A stretch of 64,000 nt of DNA. Source: Candidatus Caldisaccharidevorator malaysiensis (GTDB taxonomy: Bacteria; Armatimonadota; Fervidibacteria; Fervidibacterales; Fervidibacteraceae). The notes below the pieces were generated by a model. It searched no databases. It saw only the letters and a program-made list of their open reading frames with translations, and had not been told where the DNA came from. The DNA lies in contig JANXBO010000005.1 in the NCBI GenBank assembly GCA_025057575.1, positions 1 through 64,000 of the forward strand, given 5' to 3'. Position 1 is the stretch's first letter. The number at the start of each line of letters is the position of its first letter. This document shows, piece after piece, positions 1,135 through 55,219 of this stretch. Position numbers and translations under genes: made by a program.

Positions 1135-3885
1135 GTGGACCAATTCCCGACCGCATACGATCCGGCAGAAATTGAAGAAAAATGGTATCAGCGCTGGGAA
1201 CAGGCGGGTCTCTTTGAGGGCGGCAAGCAGGAAGGAAGACCGCCCTACTGCATCACCATTCCGCCGCCCAATGTGACCGGCTCCCTTCATATGGGTCACG
1301 CCCTCAACCATACGATCCACGACATCGTCGCTCGCTATAAGAGGATGAAGGGTTACGATGTTTTGGTCGTCCCCGGAACCGATCATGCCGGCATTGCCAC
1401 CCAGGTCGTGGTGGAGAAGGAACTGGCAAGGGAAGGGCTGTCCCGTCACCAACTGGGTCGGGAAAAGTTTTTGGAGCGGGTTTGGAAGTGGAAGGAGGAA
1501 TACGGTGGGATTATCCTCCATCAGATGAGGCGGCTGGGCTGTTCCTACGACTGGGGTCGGGAACGGTTCACGATGGACCCCGGATACGAGCGCGCCGTTT
1601 TAGAGACCTTTCTGCGCCTTTGGGAAGAAGGACTGATCTACCGAGGTTACCGCATCGTCAACTGGTGCCCTCGTTGCCTGACCGCCCTCAGTGACCTGGA
1701 GGTAGAACGGGAAGAGGAAGGGGAGCCGGGTTTTCTCTGGTTTGTCCGCTATCCTTTGTTAGAACCCGTGGGTGATGAACGGTTCATCACTGTCGCCACG
1801 ACCCGACCGGAAACGATGCTGGGGGACGTTGCCGTTGCCGTTCATCCTGAAGACTCCCGCTACCGCCATCTGCTGGGAAAGACCGCTGTCCTTCCCCTTG
1901 TTGGTCGCTACTTGCCGATCATCGGCGACGAGGCGGTTGACCCTCGTTTTGGGACCGGAGCCGTGAAGGTCACCCCCGCTCACGATCCTGCCGACTTTGA
2001 AATCGCTCAGCGAAAGAACCTCCCCAAGCCGCTCGTGATGGACGAGACGGGGACGATGATCAACGTGCCCGATCGTTTTGCGGGGTTGGACCGATTTATC
2101 GCCCGGCAAGAGGTGGTCAAAGCCCTTGAAGAGGAAGGTCTTTTGGAGCGGACGGAAGATTACCGAGTTCCCCTCGGCCGATGCTATCGCTGTGACACCG
2201 TGATTGAGCCGTTAATGTCCCTCCAATGGTTCGTTCGGATGGAGCCCCTCGCTCAGATCGCCCTGACGGTCCTGTCCGAAAACAAGATTGAATACTTGCC
2301 CCCTCGTTTCCTTCGGTTGACCATTGACTGGCTGACCAATGTCAAGGACTGGTGCATCTCCCGCCAAATATGGTGGGGTCATCGGATACCGGTCTGGTAT
2401 TGCCTGGACTGCAACGCCGGTCGCTGGCAACGGAAGCGGTATGGGGACGAAGATCGGTATCACTTTTCCGAGGACGCCCGACCCTTTGCCGCCCTCACCA
2501 CTCCCTTATCTTGCCCAGACTGTCAAGGGACCCATCTGGGTCAAGACCCCGATGTTTTGGACACCTGGTTTTCGTCCGCCATCTGGCCGCACGCTGTCTT
2601 AGGATGGCCACAAGAAACCAAGGAACTGTCTCGGTTCTACCCAACGGACCTGATGATTACCGATCGGGGCATCCTTTACCTCTGGGTCGCTCGCATGATC
2701 ATCACTGGTGTCAAGTTCGCCGGCGATATTCCCTTCCGGACCGTTTATGTCCATCCGACGGTCCTGACGAGGGAAGGGCGCCGGATGAGCAAGTCTTTGG
2801 GAACGGGCATAGATCCGATGGACCTGCTCGGTCGCTACGGTGCCGACGGTCTCCGACTGGGGCTCATCGTTCAGGCAGAAGGAACCCAGGATTTGCGCTT
2901 TCACGAAGAACGATTGGAGATGGCCCGAAACTTTGGCAAGAAACTCTGGAACGCCAGCCGGTTCGTCGCCACCGCTCTGCAATCGGGTCCTTGTGCAACC
3001 TGGGAGGAGGCACTTGCTCGGAATCCGACCCTTCCCGAGGCGTGGATCCGATCCCGTTGGCAGCGAACGGTTCTCGCTGTCGGGCAACTCTTGGATCAGA
3101 ATGATCTGGCGAGTGCCGGAATGACTCTCTACAACTTCCTTTGGGACGACTTTTGCGACTGGTTCGTGGAAATCAGCAAGCCGGCTTTGTCCGATTCCAC
3201 GATCGGTCCCTTCTATCGGGCAACTTTGCGAACGATTCTGGATTCCTGTCTCCGACTCCTTCACCCCTTTATGCCCTTTGTCACCGAGGAACTCTGGCAC
3301 CGGCTCCACTTCCCTTCCCAGCAGGAACCGTTTCTAATGATCGCCCGCTATCCGACTTTTGAACGAGACCACATTGACGAGGAAGCGGAGAAAAAGATGG
3401 CGTTTTTGATGGAACTGGTCCGCCGCACGCGCGCCCTTAAAGCCGATTTGGGGATCCCCACTGCCATCATTCCTCTCGTTTTCGCTGGTGACGAACCGCA
3501 GCGACGGGTCCTTGAAGAAAACTTGTGGTGGCTCCGATTTATCGGGCGATGGCAAGAGGTCCGATGGGTTGCCTTTGGTCAACCGGTTCCTGGTGCTTTA
3601 TCGGAGTCGGTGGACGGTGCCGAAGTTTACCTACCTTTATCGGGTCTTGGGAACCTTTCCAAAATTCGGGAGCGATTAAGCCGCCAACTGTCTGATGTGC
3701 AGAAGGAATCAGCGCGCACGCGATCGCGCCTGAGCAATCCTCAATTTTTGGAAAAGGCGCCCCAACAAGTCGTTCAGTCGCTGAAGGAGCGGCTGGCGGA
3801 ACTGGAATCGTCTCAAAAAGTGCTTCAGGCGCGTCTTAGTGCCTTGGAAAAATTTTCTTCTGAGCCCAACCCTTCCCCTTCTTAA
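1135..3885 (+). CDS. valS: Valyl-tRNA synthetase
   Basis: PPPNVTGSLHMGHALNHTIHD (HIGH) and GRRMSKSLGTGIDP (KMSKS) motifs; C-terminal coiled coil. GTG start at 1135 preferred over the 1048 ORF start: AAGGAGG lies 6 nt upstream and the longer ORF would run into the groE promoter. Confidence 0.96.
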   Translation: MDQFPTAYDPAEIEEKWYQRWEQAGLFEGGKQEGRPPYCITIPPPNVTGSLHMGHALNHTIHDIVARYKRMKGYDVLVVPGTDHAGIATQVVVEKELAREGLSRHQLGREKFLERVWKWKEEYGGIILHQMRRLGCSYDWGRERFTMDPGYERAVLETFLRLWEEGLIYRGYRIVNWCPRCLTALSDLEVEREEEGEPGFLWFVRYPLLEPVGDERFITVATTRPETMLGDVAVAVHPEDSRYRHLLGKTAVLPLVGRYLPIIGDEAVDPRFGTGAVKVTPAHDPADFEIAQRKNLPKPLVMDETGTMINVPDRFAGLDRFIARQEVVKALEEEGLLERTEDYRVPLGRCYRCDTVIEPLMSLQWFVRMEPLAQIALTVLSENKIEYLPPRFLRLTIDWLTNVKDWCISRQIWWGHRIPVWYCLDCNAGRWQRKRYGDEDRYHFSEDARPFAALTTPLSCPDCQGTHLGQDPDVLDTWFSSAIWPHAVLGWPQETKELSRFYPTDLMITDRGILYLWVARMIITGVKFAGDIPFRTVYVHPTVLTREGRRMSKSLGTGIDPMDLLGRYGADGLRLGLIVQAEGTQDLRFHEERLEMARNFGKKLWNASRFVATALQSGPCATWEEALARNPTLPEAWIRSRWQRTVLAVGQLLDQNDLASAGMTLYNFLWDDFCDWFVEISKPALSDSTIGPFYRATLRTILDSCLRLLHPFMPFVTEELWHRLHFPSQQEPFLMIARYPTFERDHIDEEAEKKMAFLMELVRRTRALKADLGIPTAIIPLVFAGDEPQRRVLEENLWWLRFIGRWQEVRWVAFGQPVPGALSESVDGAEVYLPLSGLGNLSKIRERLSRQLSDVQKESARTRSRLSNPQFLEKAPQQVVQSLKERLAELESSQKVLQARLSALEKFSSEPNPSPS

Positions 3886-30870: not shown

Positions 30871-33800
30871 TTAAGTTCCGGCTGCCCATCGGGATCGCAC
30901 GAGGAAGGGGCGGGACTGAGTTTTTCGTGTAGGTTCGTAATAGGGATAGGCAGTGGAGGGGGCGGTTTTGGCGCGAACGGGATAGCGAGCCCTTAAGCGA
31001 AACTCCCAGGTGATGGTTGCTTTTGCCCCGATTTCCTCAATGTAGAAGATGATCTGGCGGTGGGTCCTTTCATAGCGTTGAATCTTTTTCTGCTCTACCA
31101 GAGCCGACAGGTCTTCGGTGACCGGATCAAATCCTGGTGGAAGTCCGATATCTACCAGGACCATTTTTGCTGCGGCAGGCGTTCGGTTGGTCAACCGCAC
31201 TTGACAGATGACCGTTTCTTTTGTCAAGACTTCCGTTCGGTCGTAGCGGACGGAAATGTCAAGGGGTTCCTCTTCTGGGGGTGGCACCAATGCCCAGGGT
31301 AGGTAAAACCGTGCGACCGCCTGGAATAGAAAACTTCCCTTGCCCTTGAATTCCAGGGTCACTTCATTGGCTCCCTCTCGGGTCGCCGATTGGGCATCGG
31401 CTTGTAAGAGCATATCGCCGGTCTTTTCGTTCAACTGCCATTGCGCGACCGGCTGACCGTTCACCAAGACCTTTAGATCGCCGATCGTGCCTTTGCCAGT
31501 AGCAGCGGCGAGGAAGGCTTTCAGAGACCAGATCGTTGCTTGAGTGGTCTGCCAGGTCCCGAAATTGTCTTTCCTTCGGATGAGATAGGTCAGTGCCTTC
31601 GTTGCCAGATGCAGGTGCCGCCCGTGTCGCAACAGACCGAAAGCCGCCAGACCGGTCGTTTCCAAGTCGCCCGTTTCACCGGCACCGTAGAAAGGTGTGG
31701 TCTCCTTTGTCACCCAGAAGGCTTCCTCTTCGGTCTGCTTGGCGAGGTTGACCAGCCTTTCCGCTGCCCAATCGGCAAGTTCCTTGGCACTTTCCTTCTT
31801 GTCCAGTTCGTAGGCACCGGCGGCAGCGTTCAGAAGGACCGCCAAAGCGTAGGGATCCTGGGCTCCCTTTCGTTCTCTTGACAGGAAGGAAAGGGACTGA
31901 CCGATTGCTGGAGCCCAGTTCGTGGACTGACCAAACTGCTTGGCTGCGGAACTGAGAGCCCAAGCAATGTAGGCGGTCGTTCGCAAAATGTCGCTCTGCC
32001 GGTTGATCGCCCCTTCGGCGATCCCGTGCCGGTCGGGCTCCCAGGAACCGTCTTTCTTCTGCTGACTAATGAGCCACTGTCCCGTTCGGGCGATCAGATT
32101 CTCGTCCACATTGTGGACCCGACCCATATCGGAAAACTGAAGGAGCCCGTAGGCAGTTAAGACTTTGTGAGCCGGGGGGTCCCCAAACCAACTGAACCCG
32201 CCACCCGGAACTTCAAAAGTCAAAAGCCTCTGGTAACCGATGGTAATGAAATGGCGGGCTTTCATCTCGGTCTCGGGCTGTGCCTGACCGGTCTTTCTTA
32301 GGTAGTCCAAGATCAGGACATTGGGGTAGGTCACGCTACTGGTCTGCTCAAAGCAACCGAAGGGCATCCGGAGAAGATTTTCCAGACCGTCCATTACCTG
32401 AGAAAAAGCACCGGGGTAAACCTTCACCCAGATGCGGCTGGCACCGTCAATGGCAGCGTCGGGAACCTTCAAGGTCACTCTCTTGACGACGGACTTTTGG
32501 TCTTCCGCCACCATCTGATCACTCACGCTGCTCATTATCTCTTTGCCGTCCGGGACCACTTCAATGGTCCTCTTGACGGCATCGCTCATCACTTCTCCGT
32601 AAGCGAAGAGGGTCAGCGGATAGTGCCCGTGGCGAGACGCCTTGATCCGGAAGGAGACAGAGGAAACCTCGTTGGGTTCCAGGGACACAACGGGCTGGGC
32701 AGCGCTCAACAGGTCCAGCCCTTGAGGCACTTCCAATTTCAGGCGGACCCTTTGGGGCTTTGCCAGATAGTTGTAAAGGGCAGCAGGGATTTCCACCTCG
32801 TCGCCCTCAGTCAGCACCCTCGGCAAGTCCAGATCTACAAAGAAATCCTGAAAGACCCGGATGGGAGCGGTCGTGCTGCCGAGGAGCCCGGACCGGCTAT
32901 TGGCGGTGGCGGTCAGCCTCCAGGTGGTAATGGAGTCGGCAAGAGCCACCTTCATTGTTGCCCGCCCGTCCCGATCGGTTATCAATTGAGGGATGACCAG
33001 AAGGGTTTCGGGAAAGAACTGGCGGATGCGAACGGGTTGAGCACCGGGACCTTGTTCACCCGCAACGGCTGTCGCTTCTGCCAACGCAATTCCAGGTGGT
33101 CCCGCTGCGCCTACCTGTCCCACAGGACCCAGGGGGGCAACCCGCCGGGCGAAGACCGGACCGTCGGCAAAAATGGCGTCGTGAAGACGCCAGACTTCAA
33201 CCGGAACTCCCCGCCGGACGAAGGCGACCCAATCGTCGTCGCTGCCCCTCTTCCTGTCTATTCCGCCGCTGATCAGGCGAAATCCCTCTCCCCAATGGGA
33301 GCCCATCATTTCAATCCCATAAGGGATTCCTAAGGGATCACGAATATCAGCCGGAGAAAGAAGTCTCGCCCTCACCAGTTCCGGTAGAGGATCGGTTGCA
33401 CCAGGGTAATGACCCTTCAGTCTCCGGTAAGTCTCAAAAGCCTTTCGGATTTTATTTGCTGCCGTCCCCAAATGCTCTTGCCAGACCTGCTGGACCTTCT
33501 GCAACTTCTCCTGGTAGGTGCTGGCGCGCAAAGAGTAAGAGGGCTCTGGTGCCATCGCCGCTAAGAGGACCTGAGCCGCTCTCTGGACGGCGGGGGCGGG
33601 TTCGGTCTCCCGTCTCAACAGGATGGGTCTGAGTTCCCAACCGTGCACTTCATAGCGGGGTTTCAGAAGTTCTTCCTCAAGAAGAAAGTAGAGTCTCTCC
33701 AGCCCAGGCTGCGCCTCTGCCAGAGCGAAGAGGCTTTCGTCAACGATTTGAAAACCGATGGCAGCCCGGACGGGTTTGCCCTTCTGATCCTTCACCTGAA

Positions 33801-35643
33801 AAGACAGGCTGGCTTCCTCGCCGGGACGATATTGATTTTTGTCCGTTTGGACCGTTATCTGAAGCGAGTCGGCAGGTTCAACGATAACCAGTTTCGTGTC
33901 CCGAATGAAATCCCCTTCGGGAGTAATCCGATAAGCGTGCAAAAGAAGGGTCCCCACCATATCAGGCGTCACCGTGATGCTGAGGGAACCCCTTCCCCCC
34001 TGAAGGTCAATGGTTCTGGTTAGGATCGTCTGCCGATTCACGATAGCGTCCAGGAAGACGGGCTGGTTGTTCCCTTTGGCGGATCGGGCGAGGATTTGGC
34101 AGTTGATCGTGTCACCGACTTTGGCGACTGCTTTATCCAGACGAAGAAGCACCTGGTCCGGTTGTGCTGACAGTGGAAGGTTCCTCTCGTATTTGGCAAC
34201 GGACCCTTTATCGTCCACCGCTTGACCTCGGATCGTCAGGCTGGGACCCCAATCACCTTCCCCAAAACCCGGACGGACGCGGATAGCGACTTGTCTTCTC
34301 CTCCCGAAAGGCGGAGCGCCCCCTCCGGCATCAACGATTGCCGACGCTGGGATCGTGACCGTTACTTCCCCGATGCCCGTTTTGTCCGTCTGCCCCTTTC
34401 CTCGGAAGACCTCTTTGGTGCCGTCCAACCCGAAGATCGTTAGGTCAAACCGGCACGAAGCGGGTGATCCGTCGGGATAAGTGGTGACGACGAAAAGCCT
34501 CATTGGAATCTGCGGCTTCAGACTCCGGCTCTCAGGGACGACCGCCACCTCAATGGGCTGAGAACTGACAGGGAGAGTGATGACCGATCGCTCCTCCTGC
34601 TTGGCACTATCGGTGACGGTCACTTCCAGTTTCACCAGAGCCTTCCCTCCCTCAAGGGGAAGACCGACCAGCGTCTCTGGAAGGCGCGTCTCAAAGGTCC
34701 AAAACCCTTTGTCGTCCAGTCGTCCCTTCAACTCGCCAATGGGATGCCAACCGGCGGCAAAAGTCGCCAGAGCAACTTCAACGGTCCCTTTGGCGACGGG
34801 CTTGCCGAAAAAGTAATCCGCTTGGACCCGACCCGATATCGTCTGTCCCGGTAAGTAATAGGTCTTATCTGTTTCCACCTTGACCTGAAACTTGGGAAGG
34901 ACATAGCGCTGAACATTAAAAGTCTTTTCGGCTGAAGCGATGGGCGACGGGCTCTTTTGATCCAAGGACGGGATCACTGCCGTCACCCGGTAGGTCCCTA
35001 AGGTGACCTCGTCGGCGAGGGGAAACGCTCCGGCGGCAATTCCAAAATCGGAAGTCGTTGCCTCTTCCTTCAGGACCTTGTTTCCTTTCGGGTCATAAAT
35101 CTCAAAAATGATCTTTCTGCCAGCCAGTGCCGACTGGTTCGCACGGGACAGGGCTAACGCCCTTATGTGGACGGTCTGTCCGGGCTGATAGAGAGGCTTA
35201 TCGGTCGTCAAAAGAATCTGTCCTGCTTCCACAACCTGAATCTCTCTTGAGAACTCTTCTTTCCCCCGAGGCGTGTTGGCTTCAACGATCAGGCGGTAGG
35301 AACCCACCTTTTCGGGGACCTTCCAAGACGCTGACAGGGATCCCGACCGATCGGTTGATCCTTCAAAAAGGAGATCGATCTTGCCGAGGCGCTCTAAGCG
35401 GATGGAAACTTGGGCAGGAAGGGGCGACTGGGAAAGACGGTCCAGACAGGCGAGGCGAAAGGAAACTCTGCTTCCCGCCAGCCATCGGTCCTGACCGATC
35501 ACTTGAAGGTCTATTGGGGACGGGACGAAGGGGGACTGTTCAGTTTGTCGGGACCACTTCTGAGCGCTGAGAGCCGTCAGCAAAAGAGCCAAAAGGGGAA
35601 GTCCACAGAGCACTGCTGTTCGTTGGAAAGTCATCATCGTCAC
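30871..35643 (-). CDS. Bacterial alpha-2-macroglobulin family protein
   Basis: 1590 aa; MG2 motif (ILLTTDKPLYQPGQTVHIRALALS), A2M domain (DSITTWRLTATANSRSGLLGSTTAPIRVFQDFFVDLDLPRVLTEGDEVEIPAALYNY), thioester PFGCFEQTSS, terpenoid-cyclase-like TED domain. Confidence 0.93.
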   Translation of the reverse strand: MTMMTFQRTAVLCGLPLLALLLTALSAQKWSRQTEQSPFVPSPIDLQVIGQDRWLAGSRVSFRLACLDRLSQSPLPAQVSIRLERLGKIDLLFEGSTDRSGSLSASWKVPEKVGSYRLIVEANTPRGKEEFSREIQVVEAGQILLTTDKPLYQPGQTVHIRALALSRANQSALAGRKIIFEIYDPKGNKVLKEEATTSDFGIAAGAFPLADEVTLGTYRVTAVIPSLDQKSPSPIASAEKTFNVQRYVLPKFQVKVETDKTYYLPGQTISGRVQADYFFGKPVAKGTVEVALATFAAGWHPIGELKGRLDDKGFWTFETRLPETLVGLPLEGGKALVKLEVTVTDSAKQEERSVITLPVSSQPIEVAVVPESRSLKPQIPMRLFVVTTYPDGSPASCRFDLTIFGLDGTKEVFRGKGQTDKTGIGEVTVTIPASAIVDAGGGAPPFGRRRQVAIRVRPGFGEGDWGPSLTIRGQAVDDKGSVAKYERNLPLSAQPDQVLLRLDKAVAKVGDTINCQILARSAKGNNQPVFLDAIVNRQTILTRTIDLQGGRGSLSITVTPDMVGTLLLHAYRITPEGDFIRDTKLVIVEPADSLQITVQTDKNQYRPGEEASLSFQVKDQKGKPVRAAIGFQIVDESLFALAEAQPGLERLYFLLEEELLKPRYEVHGWELRPILLRRETEPAPAVQRAAQVLLAAMAPEPSYSLRASTYQEKLQKVQQVWQEHLGTAANKIRKAFETYRRLKGHYPGATDPLPELVRARLLSPADIRDPLGIPYGIEMMGSHWGEGFRLISGGIDRKRGSDDDWVAFVRRGVPVEVWRLHDAIFADGPVFARRVAPLGPVGQVGAAGPPGIALAEATAVAGEQGPGAQPVRIRQFFPETLLVIPQLITDRDGRATMKVALADSITTWRLTATANSRSGLLGSTTAPIRVFQDFFVDLDLPRVLTEGDEVEIPAALYNYLAKPQRVRLKLEVPQGLDLLSAAQPVVSLEPNEVSSVSFRIKASRHGHYPLTLFAYGEVMSDAVKRTIEVVPDGKEIMSSVSDQMVAEDQKSVVKRVTLKVPDAAIDGASRIWVKVYPGAFSQVMDGLENLLRMPFGCFEQTSSVTYPNVLILDYLRKTGQAQPETEMKARHFITIGYQRLLTFEVPGGGFSWFGDPPAHKVLTAYGLLQFSDMGRVHNVDENLIARTGQWLISQQKKDGSWEPDRHGIAEGAINRQSDILRTTAYIAWALSSAAKQFGQSTNWAPAIGQSLSFLSRERKGAQDPYALAVLLNAAAGAYELDKKESAKELADWAAERLVNLAKQTEEEAFWVTKETTPFYGAGETGDLETTGLAAFGLLRHGRHLHLATKALTYLIRRKDNFGTWQTTQATIWSLKAFLAAATGKGTIGDLKVLVNGQPVAQWQLNEKTGDMLLQADAQSATREGANEVTLEFKGKGSFLFQAVARFYLPWALVPPPEEEPLDISVRYDRTEVLTKETVICQVRLTNRTPAAAKMVLVDIGLPPGFDPVTEDLSALVEQKKIQRYERTHRQIIFYIEEIGAKATITWEFRLRARYPVRAKTAPSTAYPYYEPTRKTQSRPFLVRSRWAAGT

Positions 35644-35856: not shown

Positions 35857-35916
35857 TTACAAAAGGGCTGAACGATGCTAATGATGAAATGTTTCATTCT
35901 AACAGGAGGGGTTGAG

Positions 35917-36768
35917 ATGAGAGATTGTCATCGGCGAGTTGTTGACGGTCGTGGGTTCACTCTCATTGAGCTTCTGGTGGTGATCGCTATCATCGCCATT
36001 TTGGCTGCGATTCTGTTCCCCGTGTTCAGCCAGGCACGGGAGAAGGCTCGGTCGGCATCCTGCTTGTCTAACGGGAAGAACATTGGCACGGCAATGAGTA
36101 TGTATATGGGGGATTACGACGAAGTCGTTTATGCCTGGGTGACTCGCGCACCGGGCAATCCCCGGACTGGTCCCAACTGCCCTGCCGATCCGGAGAACTG
36201 CCGGACCAATGTGGTGGTCTGGACCCAGCAGTTCCAGCCCTATCTAAGAAACAAGCAGGTCCTCTACTGTCCGTCCTTCAACGAGGAGGTTCTCAAGAAC
36301 AATGCGGCTCATCCTAATTGCGACGGAGCGGGAATAATTCCCTGGTTCCCGGCTTTCTACTACTATTCTCACTACGGGGTTGCCCACTCCGCCATTTTTG
36401 GTGAATGCACGACCACCTATCCCAGAAACGCTTTTCCAGGGAACGCCGTTGACTTTAGTCCACCTGTGCGGACCCTGGCTGCCATTCGCCGACCATCAGA
36501 AATCGCCATTTTGCAAGACAACTTCACGGCGCAAATCAATCAGGCGGCTTTTGGCATTCCCTATGTGATTGGAACCGCCTTTGGTTGCGAATGCGGCTGG
36601 GAAGGCGTTGGCGAAAGCCGGCATCATAGGGGATGCAACTACATCTTTTTGGATGGTCATGCCAAGTTGATCCAGGGCAATGTAGAAAGAACCCCGCAGA
36701 TCTCCTGCCCAGGCGCCTTTGGGGTGCCCGATTGCGTCTGTGCTGCTTATACGACTTACGACTACTAA
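35917..36768 (+). CDS. Prepilin-like protein with type IV N-methylation signal and H-X9-DG C-terminal motif (DUF1559/SBP_bac_10-like)
   Basis: [34 protein letters not shown]-terminal [15 protein letters not shown] at 35917 preceded by AGGAGGGG. Confidence 0.88.
35955..36005 (+). repeat. 51-nt perfect direct repeat, copy 1 (prepilin signal segment)
   Basis: gttcactctcattgagcttctggtggtgatcgctatcatcgccattttggc, identical to 37090-37140. Confidence 0.95.
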
Positions 36769-36784
36769 GAAGGCGGTGGGGTTG

Positions 36785-36934
36785 ATGAAGAAGGCTTGGG
36801 TTGGTGTCATTGCCGTCGTCATCATTATCCTCTGCGTGGGTTACCTGGTCAAGACCTTTGTCCTTCCGCCACCGCAGCCCCCTGCCGATCCAAACGCTCC
36901 AAGGGCAGGACACGCAGCGCCCTTGCTTGAGTGA
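36785..36934 (+). CDS. Small single-TM protein with Pro-rich tail
   Basis: MKKAWVGVIAVVIIILCVGYLVKTFVLPPPQPPADPNAPRAGHAAPLLE; sits 16 nt downstream of the prepilin-like gene. Confidence 0.62.
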   Translation: MKKAWVGVIAVVIIILCVGYLVKTFVLPPPQPPADPNAPRAGHAAPLLE

Positions 36935-37048
36935 TGGATGACCGCGCGCAGTTTCCGATTGTCTGCTAACCCGCAGAGCAGTTGTAAGAAGGAAGTTTTG
37001 TTATTTTCGAAAAAGGAATTAACTCAGGCGAAAGGAGGGGACACCGTA

Positions 37049-37939
37049 ATGGATGCAGTGCCGCGTCGCAAAAGCCGGTTTCTGTCCGCGTTCACTCTCA
37101 TTGAGCTTCTGGTGGTGATCGCTATCATCGCCATTTTGGCGTCTATTCTGTTTCCGGTCTTCAGCCAGGCTCGGGAGAAGGCTCGTCAGTCTACCTGCAC
37201 CAGTAACTTTCGCAATGTCAGCATGGCGATATCGCAATATTCTCAGGATTACGACGAACTTTTCCCGATGACTCGTCTTTTTCCGACAATCTCAGGGCAT
37301 TCTTATGTGACGTCTCCACCGGACGCCAGACCGACCTCAGCGTTTATCATTGGTTTGCGGAGCACTTACTGGGTCAACAGCACCCAGCCGTATCTGCGAA
37401 ACTACGATTTGCACCGGTGTCCTTCCGCGGTTCCAACCGACTACTTTGGAATTGCTGGTCAAGTCGTTGCCGGAAGACTGTTCGCTTACAGTTACTTCTT
37501 CAATCGCCTTCTGGCGGTGTATCACCAAGCGGGCATAATGAACCCGACAAAGGTCATTGCGGTGTGGGAAGCGGCAGGCAATATGGCGATTCAGGTGACG
37601 GCAGGACACTCCCCGGCGATTGTTGACCCACCGGACAATGACCCAGCGACCTTCCCCAATGTTTACAGACCGGAGCCACCCTGCCCGCCTGGCACCACTT
37701 CGTGGATGTATAGCATCTCGTGGGACCACACTGCGCCTTCGGGGGTTCAGTGGCGACCCAATCTCCAGGTTCATACAGGCGGGACCGTCTATTCCTACGG
37801 GGACGGTCACGTTAAGTGGCAGCGCAACCCCGGACACTGGGATCAGTCGCCGTGGGCAAGCCTGACCGCCGTTGGGTCTGCAGAAAGTTACTGGTGGAGC
37901 GGATGCGCCCCTTATTTGTTCCGACCAGTCGTTCAGTAA
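37049..37939 (+). CDS. Second prepilin-like protein with H-X9-DG motif
   Basis: [34 protein letters not shown]-terminal H-TGGTVYSYG-DG. ATG at 37049 preceded by AAAGGAGGGG. Confidence 0.88.
   Translation: MDAVPRRKSRFLSAFTLIELLVVIAIIAILASILFPVFSQAREKARQSTCTSNFRNVSMAISQYSQDYDELFPMTRLFPTISGHSYVTSPPDARPTSAFIIGLRSTYWVNSTQPYLRNYDLHRCPSAVPTDYFGIAGQVVAGRLFAYSYFFNRLLAVYHQAGIMNPTKVIAVWEAAGNMAIQVTAGHSPAIVDPPDNDPATFPNVYRPEPPCPPGTTSWMYSISWDHTAPSGVQWRPNLQVHTGGTVYSYGDGHVKWQRNPGHWDQSPWASLTAVGSAESYWWSGCAPYLFRPVVQ
37090..37140 (+). repeat. 51-nt perfect direct repeat, copy 2
   Basis: Identical to 35955-36005. Confidence 0.95.
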
Positions 37940-52801: not shown

Positions 52802-55219
52802 CTACCCAGCCGTCATCCGTTTCCCTATGTAAAGAAGCGTGGTGACGGCAACGAGACTTGTCGCTGTCACAATGGACCAGACCACCCACTGTGGCGAGGT
52901 GCCCTCCGAAGACCTCCCTGCCGTTATCTGAGGGACTGCTCTGAACAGTTCCTTTATCTCTTCCTCGGACAGGTCTTCTTTTCCTGACGGACCGAAGCGC
53001 ACCGCTGTTTTATCGTCCAAGACGACGATCACGTCCTCGCCCAAGGACGCCCATTTTCTGATGACGGACCTGGCTTCGGTCAGTTTCACGGCTGCTGGCG
53101 AAAATTGTTGAATAGAAATCAAGCGGTGCTGATCGGGGTCATAGAGCGTATCCACCCATTGGGTGCCCTTCTGCACAAAGGCTTTCCCTGCAACCCATCT
53201 CGCTCCTGGAAGGATGACCACTTTCCCCTCTCGGTCAATAATTGCTTGCCCCGCCGGTGCGGCGGGCATCCAGCCGAGACCACCAAACCCACCCAGGGAA
53301 GGGGCAGCCGATGGTGCCGCTTGAATCATCCGCCGAAGCGGTGCCTGGCTACCGGCTCTCAGTTCATAGTCACTGGTCGCCCTTTGGAGCGCTTGGCGGT
53401 TCAGCGCTTGAGCCACCGCCCAAGGTCCGCTGGTCTGAAGCCTTGCCTCCTCTAGATCCCGCCTCACTCTCTCTCGCGCCAGAGGAACGGGAAGATGGGG
53501 CTCAAGGACGAGAAAGGCGGTGAATTCCGTCAGAACGCCGAATTGCCGAGACAAGCGCAGGATTTCATCTATCAGTTCTGTTCGGCTCGCCCCACGGACG
53601 TCGGCAAGTTCGTCCAGCAGGTAACCGATCTTCCGCGCTGCCCATATGCGGGGGACGAAATCGTTTTCCGTATCTCTTTCCGGAAAGGACAGACGGAAAG
53701 TTAACGATTCCTCCTTGCCTGCCAACTGCCCAGTCAAGGTCAGTGTCGCGTCTCCTTTCTCTCGGTAAGTTCCCGCCAGGGTGACTTCGGTCCCTCGGAA
53801 GATGTCGGGGATCTCCTTGGGGTAAACATCCCGAACGCTGACACCGTCCCAACGGGCTTTAACATCGGTGAAGACCGGCTGACTGAGCATTGAGAAAAGT
53901 TCGGAGATTTTCCCTTCCACTGCTTCTTCTGGTCGCACATAGAAACTGACCCCGCCATTGTCTCTTGCCAAACGATCCAAGAACTGGGTGTTGACATCGT
54001 AGCCGACACCGAAGACGAAGAGCCGAACCTTTGCTTCATTGGCTTTCGCGACGTTAGCCAGGATGCGGTCGGTATCGGTGATCCCAACGGTCGGCAGACC
54101 GTCCGTTAAAAAGAGGATGTAGCGGGGATGCCGTCTCATCTTAAAGAGGCTGAGGGCTTCCAAAAGGGCGTCGTTGATGTTGGTCCCGCCAGAAGCCGTC
54201 ACATCTTCAAAGAAACGGATTGCCTCCTTCTTGTTTTTGGAATTGGCTTCTCTCAAGTCTTCCCATAAGAGATCGGGTGATTCATTAAAGACGATGACAG
54301 AGAAGCGATCCTCCGGATTGAGACTTTCCACGCAGAACTTCAAGGCTTCTTTCGCCTGCTCTATTTTCTTGCCCGACATACTTCCCGTCCGATCCAGGAC
54401 AAAGACCACATCCTTTGCCGACTGGTCCCTTTTGTCCCAAGCCAGTTGAGGGGTCAGAAAAACGAGAAAGTAACCGTCCTTGTCGCCTCGCTCCCGATAA
54501 GTGAGCAGAGTGGCACCCATCGGACCTTCGGCAACGCTGTAATAGAGGGTAAAGTCGTCAACGGGCTTCACATTTCTCTCTTCGTAGGTCACGATAGCCG
54601 TATGGTCGTCGGGGCGCCGGACCGAGACGGGATGGGTCGGCGAGTAAACGGTCTTGATGGGACGCCGGGAGGAGATGCGGATCGTGATGGTGGCTTCCTC
54701 TGCCGGTCGGGCAGACAGCCCTTCTATCTTCATCGGGTAAACGAAACGGTATAGATTGCCCTGCCTGCTGAGGACCTGATCGTAATGGACCTCTGTCTCT
54801 CTCTGACCCTGGGGCGGGAAGGGAAAGATCCTCAGGCGAAAGGTTTGGCGCCCGATGAGTTCCAAAAGAGCCGGATCCTTGCGGGCTCCAACAATCCTCT
54901 CGTAAGTTCTTCTCGCCTCCTCCCGGCTCATCAGTTCGCCTTCGTAAGTTTTCCCGTCAATCACCAGAGCGAAGCGATGGACGGCAGCTCCATCGGGCAC
55001 AGGGAACAAATAGATGCCTTCCGTCTCAAAAGGGGCTTCATTGACAAAGGCTTGGCGGGCTTCCACCAGGACCGTCCCATCGGCGATCGTTGCCTTCATA
55101 TGGCGATACTTCAAGGAGAAGGAAGGTCCTGGTCTGGGAGGCACGATAATCCCGCAAGGCGAAGCGACAGAGGCGGTCACCGCTAAAAGAGCCAGCCAGA
55201 GGATCAGTCCCCTCTTCAT
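52802..55219 (-). CDS. VIT + von Willebrand factor A domain protein with signal peptide and C-terminal TM
   Basis: N-terminal VIT-like domain; DVVFVLDRTGSMSGKKIEQAKEALKF (MIDAS DxSxS-like), YILFLTDGLPTVG; C-terminal WVVWSIVTATSLVAVTTLLYIGKRMTAG. Confidence 0.88.
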   Translation of the reverse strand: MKRGLILWLALLAVTASVASPCGIIVPPRPGPSFSLKYRHMKATIADGTVLVEARQAFVNEAPFETEGIYLFPVPDGAAVHRFALVIDGKTYEGELMSREEARRTYERIVGARKDPALLELIGRQTFRLRIFPFPPQGQRETEVHYDQVLSRQGNLYRFVYPMKIEGLSARPAEEATITIRISSRRPIKTVYSPTHPVSVRRPDDHTAIVTYEERNVKPVDDFTLYYSVAEGPMGATLLTYRERGDKDGYFLVFLTPQLAWDKRDQSAKDVVFVLDRTGSMSGKKIEQAKEALKFCVESLNPEDRFSVIVFNESPDLLWEDLREANSKNKKEAIRFFEDVTASGGTNINDALLEALSLFKMRRHPRYILFLTDGLPTVGITDTDRILANVAKANEAKVRLFVFGVGYDVNTQFLDRLARDNGGVSFYVRPEEAVEGKISELFSMLSQPVFTDVKARWDGVSVRDVYPKEIPDIFRGTEVTLAGTYREKGDATLTLTGQLAGKEESLTFRLSFPERDTENDFVPRIWAARKIGYLLDELADVRGASRTELIDEILRLSRQFGVLTEFTAFLVLEPHLPVPLARERVRRDLEEARLQTSGPWAVAQALNRQALQRATSDYELRAGSQAPLRRMIQAAPSAAPSLGGFGGLGWMPAAPAGQAIIDREGKVVILPGARWVAGKAFVQKGTQWVDTLYDPDQHRLISIQQFSPAAVKLTEARSVIRKWASLGEDVIVVLDDKTAVRFGPSGKEDLSEEEIKELFRAVPQITAGRSSEGTSPQWVVWSIVTATSLVAVTTLLYIGKRMTAG

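What the first reader, a model, noticed from the sequence alone, without database searches (positions are those of the whole stretch)
33210..33445. GspG-like pseudopilin segment inserted in the bait region of an alpha-2-macroglobulin
Between MG domains and the A2M domain the protein carries AFETYRRLKGHYPGATDPLPELVRARLLSPADIRDPLGIPYGIEMMGSHWGEGFRLISGGIDRKRGSDDD. This resembles the T2SS major pseudopilin C-terminal domain (DPWGxPY...L.S.G.DG...DDI). It is followed by a collagen-like GPVGQVGAAGPPG tract. In A2M this is about where the protease bait lies, so a pseudopilin-like, possibly Ca-binding bait would be a new design for a protease trap.
Basis: partly seen in the sequence, partly recalled or inferred. 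Interest (0 to 1): 0.62.

Follow-up and report, generated by a model that had tools for sequence, protein, structure and literature searches.

The report
Pseudopilin-like domain inside bacterial macroglobulin trap
A widespread group of bacterial protease-trap proteins (alpha-2-macroglobulins) carries, right beside the disordered stretch that probably serves as protease bait, a small calcium-binding domain derived from the pilin of bacterial secretion machines, in the slot where complement proteins of animals carry their anaphylatoxin domain.

Summary
The window encodes a 1590-aa thioester alpha-2-macroglobulin (30871-35643, minus). Residues ~707-819 form a GspG-like (type II secretion major pseudopilin) soluble domain between MG6 and the FPET motif, the slot of the A2M bait and the C3 anaphylatoxin. 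Alone, the segment reaches Pfam's T2SSG cut-off (21-24 bits vs 21). A profile of 81 relatives finds GspG structures as the top 8 PDB hits (3G20, E 5e-10). All 80 relatives examined, from many bacterial phyla, carry it. The calcium-ligand positions of 3G20 (D117/T122/D125) are kept: D796 in 81/81, T/S/N801 in 81/81, D804 in 80/81. Latch residues Arg874/Phe877 and the thioester GCFEQ are retained, so a classical cut-and-trap mechanism is the best reading. It is probably not a secretion part: it persists in WOR-3 chromosomes without GspG. No held paper mentions both macroglobulin and pseudopilin. The inserted domain's function is inferred, not shown.

The parts
30871..35643 (-). Gene for a 1590-aa secreted type-I alpha-2-macroglobulin (MG2, MG3, A2M_BRD, A2M, TED, receptor-binding domain)
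   Evidence: ORF, Pfam; best solved relatives are CD109 and human A2M (216 and 211 bits), E. coli YfhM 41 bits
35563..35643 (-). Probable Sec signal peptide, residues 1-27 (no lipobox Cys)
   Evidence: Read from the sequence (basic start, long hydrophobic run, ALSA); no predictor was run
33721..34146 (-). A2M_BRD match, residues 500-641 (MG5 to first half of MG6)
   Evidence: Pfam PF07703
33187..33525 (-). GspG-like domain, residues 707-819 (long helix, short helices, beta strands with Ca loop)
   Evidence: T2SSG; PDB profile; AlphaFold pLDDT 89; Foldseek top 8 all type IV pilins or GspG, weak E-values
33232..33264 (-). Predicted Ca-binding loop GIDRKRGSDDD, residues 794-804; ligand positions D796, S801, D804
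   Evidence: Conserved in 81/81, 81/81 (T/S/N) and 80/81 aligned sequences; matches 3G20 ligands D117/T122/D125 as listed in PMC3396595
33046..33168 (-). Probable protease bait: disordered hypervariable linker, residues 826-866, including the short collagen-like tract
   Evidence: pLDDT about 30; identity 0.19 versus 0.45-0.56 for host domains; Met/Gly/Ala/Arg/Pro enriched, no Cys in 5317 residues
33013..33024 (-). RQFF, residues 874-877; Arg874 and Phe877 correspond to the bait-C latch Arg730/Phe733 of human A2ML1
   Evidence: Invariant in alignments A1 and A4; aligned with A2ML1; role described in PMC9156758
32734..32994 (-). A2M match (second half of MG6, start of MG7), residues 884-970
   Evidence: Pfam PF00207
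32344..32358 (-). Thioester motif GCFEQ, residues 1096-1100, in TED
   Evidence: found in 77 of 80 relatives
31513..32406 (-). Thioester domain (TED), residues 1080-1377
   Evidence: Pfam PF07678

Best explanation
This is a secreted or periplasmic thioester alpha-2-macroglobulin of a distinct bacterial family. An ancestor acquired a GspG (major pseudopilin) soluble domain, without its membrane helix, in the MG6 insert. Shown by computation: homology, position, predicted fold, conservation of the Ca-ligand pattern, retention of thioester and latch residues. Inferred mechanism: an invading protease cuts the disordered linker (about 826-866) just C-terminal to the pseudopilin-like domain. The bait-C strand with Arg874/Phe877 then relocates, the molecule rearranges, and the GCFEQ thioester attaches to the protease. 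The pseudopilin-like domain works as a compact, Ca-stabilised module that presents the bait or spaces it from the ring, and it stays on the N-terminal half after the cut. Because GspG needs Ca, the trap may be properly folded only outside the cytoplasm, where Ca is plentiful.
For: Domain architecture and GCFEQ. T2SSG match above cut-off and family-wide; PDB profile hits all GspG at the top, E down to 5e-10; search of 61 genomes with the insert profile finds almost only A2M inserts and true GspG; signal survives removal of the Ca loop. Folded insert followed by a disordered linker. 80 of 80 relatives carry it, although the scan patterns lay upstream of it. Ca positions kept. Latch Arg/Phe invariant. 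Mostly fold and Ca residues are highly conserved in the insert, which favours a structural role over a fixed binding surface. The insert's distances track the host protein's (Mantel r 0.60-0.69) as host domains track each other (0.60-0.69), as expected of one old acquisition inherited with the gene.
Against: No experiment: protease trapping, Ca binding and bait cleavage are untested. Foldseek E-values of the insert are weak (0.02-0.15; best TM 0.55 to 3GN9). The window copy is degenerate at one hallmark (DPLG instead of DPWG) and lacks the Gly after the first Ca ligand (GIDR instead of GPDG). Spacer/presenter is chosen mainly because other roles fit worse. The 80 relatives are the best-scoring of 350 and the query included the insert, so members without it could be under-sampled.
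Confidence: 0.6

Rival explanations
1. The pseudopilin-like domain is itself the bait: proteases cut within it and Ca controls its susceptibility.
For: It lies in the bait slot; a Ca loop could tune protease sensitivity.
Against: Predicted folded with high confidence, signature present in all relatives examined, while a disordered variable stretch lies right after it and directly before the FPET motif, as the bait does in human A2M and A2ML1.
Confidence: 0.1
2. The domain docks the macroglobulin onto the type II secretion pseudopilus or a type IV pilus, placing the trap at the secretion exit.
For: True homology to GspG; 17 of 20 genomes with this macroglobulin have a true GspG versus 23 of 41 without it (Fisher p 0.04, not corrected for kinship).
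Against: In two WOR-3 chromosomes (G063, G066) the macroglobulin insert is the only T2SSG match, and in two more (G061, G064) the only other match is a short partial one, though a secretin is present in each. G006 (98% complete) also has no strong GspG. No N-terminal helix for assembly, no conserved surface patch evident from the conserved columns, no widely conserved gene neighbours.
Confidence: 0.08
3. The domain is a releasable signal or effector, like C3a of complement: two cuts, in the variable stretches before and after it, free a Ca-binding pseudopilin-like fragment.
For: It occupies the slot where C3/C4/C5 carry the anaphylatoxin (PMC9156758; alignment); flanking stretches are variable.
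Against: The upstream stretch runs straight into the domain's own long helix and shows no obvious processing site; the domain is poorly conserved outside the fold and Ca residues, unlike a receptor ligand.
Confidence: 0.08
4. The family is no longer a protease trap; it is a structural or adhesive envelope protein that reacts through its thioester with surfaces or sugars, like C3.
For: Thioester kept; variable linkers can serve adhesion; one relative (L018) also carries a dockerin-like segment next to the insert.
Against: Invariant latch residues and a hypervariable, disordered linker are what a bait-triggered machine needs.
Confidence: 0.12

Closest known systems
Human A2M / A2ML1 / CD109 (A2M-family protease inhibitors)
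   Same: MG ring, MG6 insert, VR-x-FFPET-like motif, thioester domain, receptor-binding domain; closest solved sequences
   Different: Bait without a pseudopilin-like domain in the MG6 insert; thioester Cys-Gly-Glu-Gln (PMC9156758) instead of CFEQ
Complement C3/C4/C5
   Same: A folded domain sits in the MG6 insert next to the activation cleavage site; the predicted ring resembles C3b/C4b
   Different: That domain is an anaphylatoxin, not a Ca-binding pilin-like domain, and it is separated from the linker region by furin processing (PMC9156758)
E. coli / Salmonella type I A2M (YfhM, ECAM, Sa-A2M)
   Same: Bacterial, thioester, bait (PMC5764988, PMC4498604)
   Different: Much more distant in sequence (41 bits); not itself examined here for an insert. 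The second macroglobulin of the window's own genome has only a short linker there
GspG / PulG / EpsG / XcpT major pseudopilins
   Same: Same soluble domain, DPWG motif and Ca loop
   Different: No prepilin leader or N-terminal membrane helix here; embedded in a 1590-aa protein; the inserts and GspG lie on two sides of one branch, SH-aLRT 100

Membership tests
Type I (thioester) alpha-2-macroglobulin | MG-domain array with TED and receptor-binding domain | tested here: met
   Pfam; ring model matches C4b/C3b/CD109/A2ML1
Type I (thioester) alpha-2-macroglobulin | CxEQ thioester | tested here: met
   GCFEQ 1096-1100, 77 of 80 relatives
Type I (thioester) alpha-2-macroglobulin | Exposed bait region in the MG6 insert | tested here: inconclusive
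   Disordered hypervariable linker at the right place; cleavage not tested
Type I (thioester) alpha-2-macroglobulin | Thioester-dependent protease capture | not testable with these tools
   Needs biochemistry
GspG major pseudopilin (as a domain, PF08334) | Soluble domain at or above the Pfam cut-off | tested here: met
   21.0-23.7 bits vs 21 when the segment is scanned alone; 15.6 in the whole protein
GspG major pseudopilin (as a domain, PF08334) | Ca-ligand residues of 3G20 (D117, T122, D125) | tested here: met
   D796, S801 (Ser for Thr), D804 (ligands from PMC3396595); actual Ca binding not tested
GspG major pseudopilin (as a protein) | Prepilin leader and N-terminal hydrophobic helix | tested here: not met
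   Domain is internal; no N_methyl match
GspG major pseudopilin (as a protein) | NCBIfam equivalog cut-off TIGR01710 (88.85 bits) | tested here: not met
   14.1 bits
Complement C3/C4/C5 | Anaphylatoxin domain in the MG6 insert | tested here: not met
   No such Pfam match; slot filled by the GspG-like domain
Collagen-like protein | Extended Gly-X-Y repeats | tested here: not met
   Four triplets only in the window; Collagen model in 1 of 18 at E 0.26

The most novel reading that the evidence does not exclude
A widespread bacterial macroglobulin family in which a pseudopilin-derived, Ca-binding domain took the structural place of the anaphylatoxin, making a Ca-dependent protease trap, possibly one that frees this domain as a cleavage signal.
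Probability: 0.15. Interest if true: 0.85.

Novelty: new variant of a known kind. Interest (0 to 1): 0.6.

Why it matters
It shows that a secretion-machine domain was recruited into a thioester immune-type protein in bacteria, in the slot that animals fill with a bait or an anaphylatoxin. The family is large (350 related stretches found, many phyla), and this member is closer in sequence to animal CD109/A2M than to the well-studied E. coli protein, so it is a good place to study how the bait/anaphylatoxin slot evolved. It also gives a directly testable Ca-dependence hypothesis.

Tried and rejected
Similarity due only to the Ca loop: rejected by the loop-less profile. Recent or repeated insertion: no sign of it; insert distances track the host protein and inserts fall on one side of a branch from GspG. 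Function through the secretion system: weakened by genomes without GspG. Conserved operon partners: none shared widely across 63 loci; the most shared families occur in 6 or fewer. Collagen-like domain: not a family feature. Plasmid-borne spread: only one distant plasmid match. The 2004 paper on bacterial macroglobulins (PMC463071) is not in the library. Literature: no held paper has both 'macroglobulin' and 'pseudopilin'; the three with 'macroglobulin' and 'GspG' look unrelated by title and abstract.

Full report
What is there. The minus-strand ORF 30871-35643 encodes 1590 residues with MG2, MG3, A2M_BRD (500-641), A2M (884-970), TED (1080-1377) and receptor-binding domain, and thioester GCFEQ at 1096-1100. 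The nearest solved sequences are human CD109 and A2M (216 and 211 bits); E. coli YfhM scores 41 bits. The same genome has a second, more distant macroglobulin (contig C63; 29% identity over one stretch) with motif GCTEQ and only a short linker before FPDT.

The insert. The quoted peptide lies where reported. Alone it reaches 21.9-23.7 bits for Pfam T2SSG, cut-off 21; in the whole protein only 15.6, so routine annotation would miss it. All 18 orthologous inserts from relatives match T2SSG. A scan of one genome for each of 84,980 species gave 350 related stretches, of which the best 80 were kept, from Armatimonadota, Planctomycetota, WOR-3, Hydrogenedentota, Poribacteria, Cloacimonadota, Acidobacteriota, Myxococcota and others by record title. 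All 80 have the D-x-W/L/F ... G-x-D-x(5-8)-D-D/E signature; 66 of 81, the window included, match T2SSG on their own. The patterns used for the scan lay upstream of the insert, so its presence is not built in, although the ranking did use it. More distant macroglobulins in the relatives' genomes (L022-L031) show no such domain in the same place.

Homology or chance. The insert profile finds GspG structures first in the PDB (3G20 5e-10, then 1T92, 2KEP, 5WDA, 3GN9, 3FU1, 4LW9 among the top eight). In 61 genomes the same profile finds the macroglobulin inserts (73-151 bits), then mostly true GspG (22-51 bits), and little else. With the Ca loop removed GspG is still found. AlphaFold gives pLDDT 89 with a long helix, short helices and beta strands; Foldseek's best eight matches are all type IV pilins or GspG, though E-values are weak. 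In a tree, 41 inserts and 20 true GspG separate on one branch with SH-aLRT 100. Insert distances correlate with host domains (r 0.60-0.69) as host domains do with each other (0.60-0.69).

Calcium site. In GspG structure 3G20 calcium is held by side chains of D117, T122 and D125 within G-x-D-G-x-x-[GN]-[TN]-x-D-D (PMC3396595). The matching positions here are D796 (81/81), T/S/N801 (81/81; Ser in the window) and D804 (80/81), with D803 81/81. Only 22 of 81 meet the strict published motif; the ligand spacing is kept in all. The window copy has lost the usual Trp of DPWG (Leu771).

Bait. In the predicted ring (residues 140-1075) the pseudopilin-like domain is folded and residues 826-866 are disordered (pLDDT about 30), then the second half of MG6 resumes. 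The linker (831-870) is hypervariable (identity 0.19; insert core 0.33; host domains 0.45-0.56). Over the family it is enriched in Met 3.2x, Gly 2.0x, Ala 1.8x, Arg 1.7x and Pro 1.5x, with no Cys in 5317 residues. The motif after it aligns with that of human A2M and A2ML1. In A2ML1 the linker region and bait form one MG6 insert, complement replaces the bait with the anaphylatoxin, and Arg730/Phe733 help pull the cut bait end out of its channel (PMC9156758). Their counterparts Arg874/Phe877 are invariant here.

Not a secretion part. In two WOR-3 chromosomes (G063, G066) the macroglobulin is the only protein with a T2SSG match; in two more (G061, G064) the only other match is a short partial one; each has a secretin. 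Across 61 relatives the co-occurrence with GspG is weak (17/20 versus 23/41, p 0.04, kinship ignored). No gene neighbours are widely conserved. The most conserved insert residues are mainly those of the DPWG turn and the Ca loop, which suggests selection on fold and metal site rather than on one binding surface.

Judgement. Homology and placement are close to certain; a bait-triggered thioester trap is likely; the role of the domain as a Ca-stabilised bait presenter is inference. It is a new variant of a known kind.

Noticed in passing
L018 (relative), insert region 1797-2564 (-): Beside the GspG-like domain this relative has a dockerin-like stretch, another Ca-binding type of module in the same slot; one of the 18 members matches Pfam Dockerin_1, E 0.0044 (assigned to L018 from its sequence).
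   Followed up: partly
L151:1614-3056 (-) and L152:729-2054 (+) (relatives G001, G020): Proteins of about 440-480 aa, apparently unrelated to macroglobulin, carry a GspG-like C-terminal stretch (e.g. RGAYP...DPF...SIGPDGKDDGG), so the pilin-derived module seems to have been reused elsewhere.
   Followed up: partly
window 52802-55219 (-): VIT + VWA protein, the domain pair of animal inter-alpha-trypsin inhibitor heavy chains, about 17 kb from the macroglobulin gene.
   Followed up: no
window 35875-37939 (+): Two divergently oriented neighbouring genes with N_methyl pilin leader and DUF1559.
   Followed up: no
window 30871-35643 (-): The window protein scores far better against human CD109/A2M than against E. 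coli A2M (216 vs 41 bits), so this family may bear on the origin of animal macroglobulins.
   Followed up: partly
G000:C69 (L032): The same genome has a true GspG in a gspF-G-H-I-like gene row (names of the neighbours from sequence inspection).
   Followed up: partly
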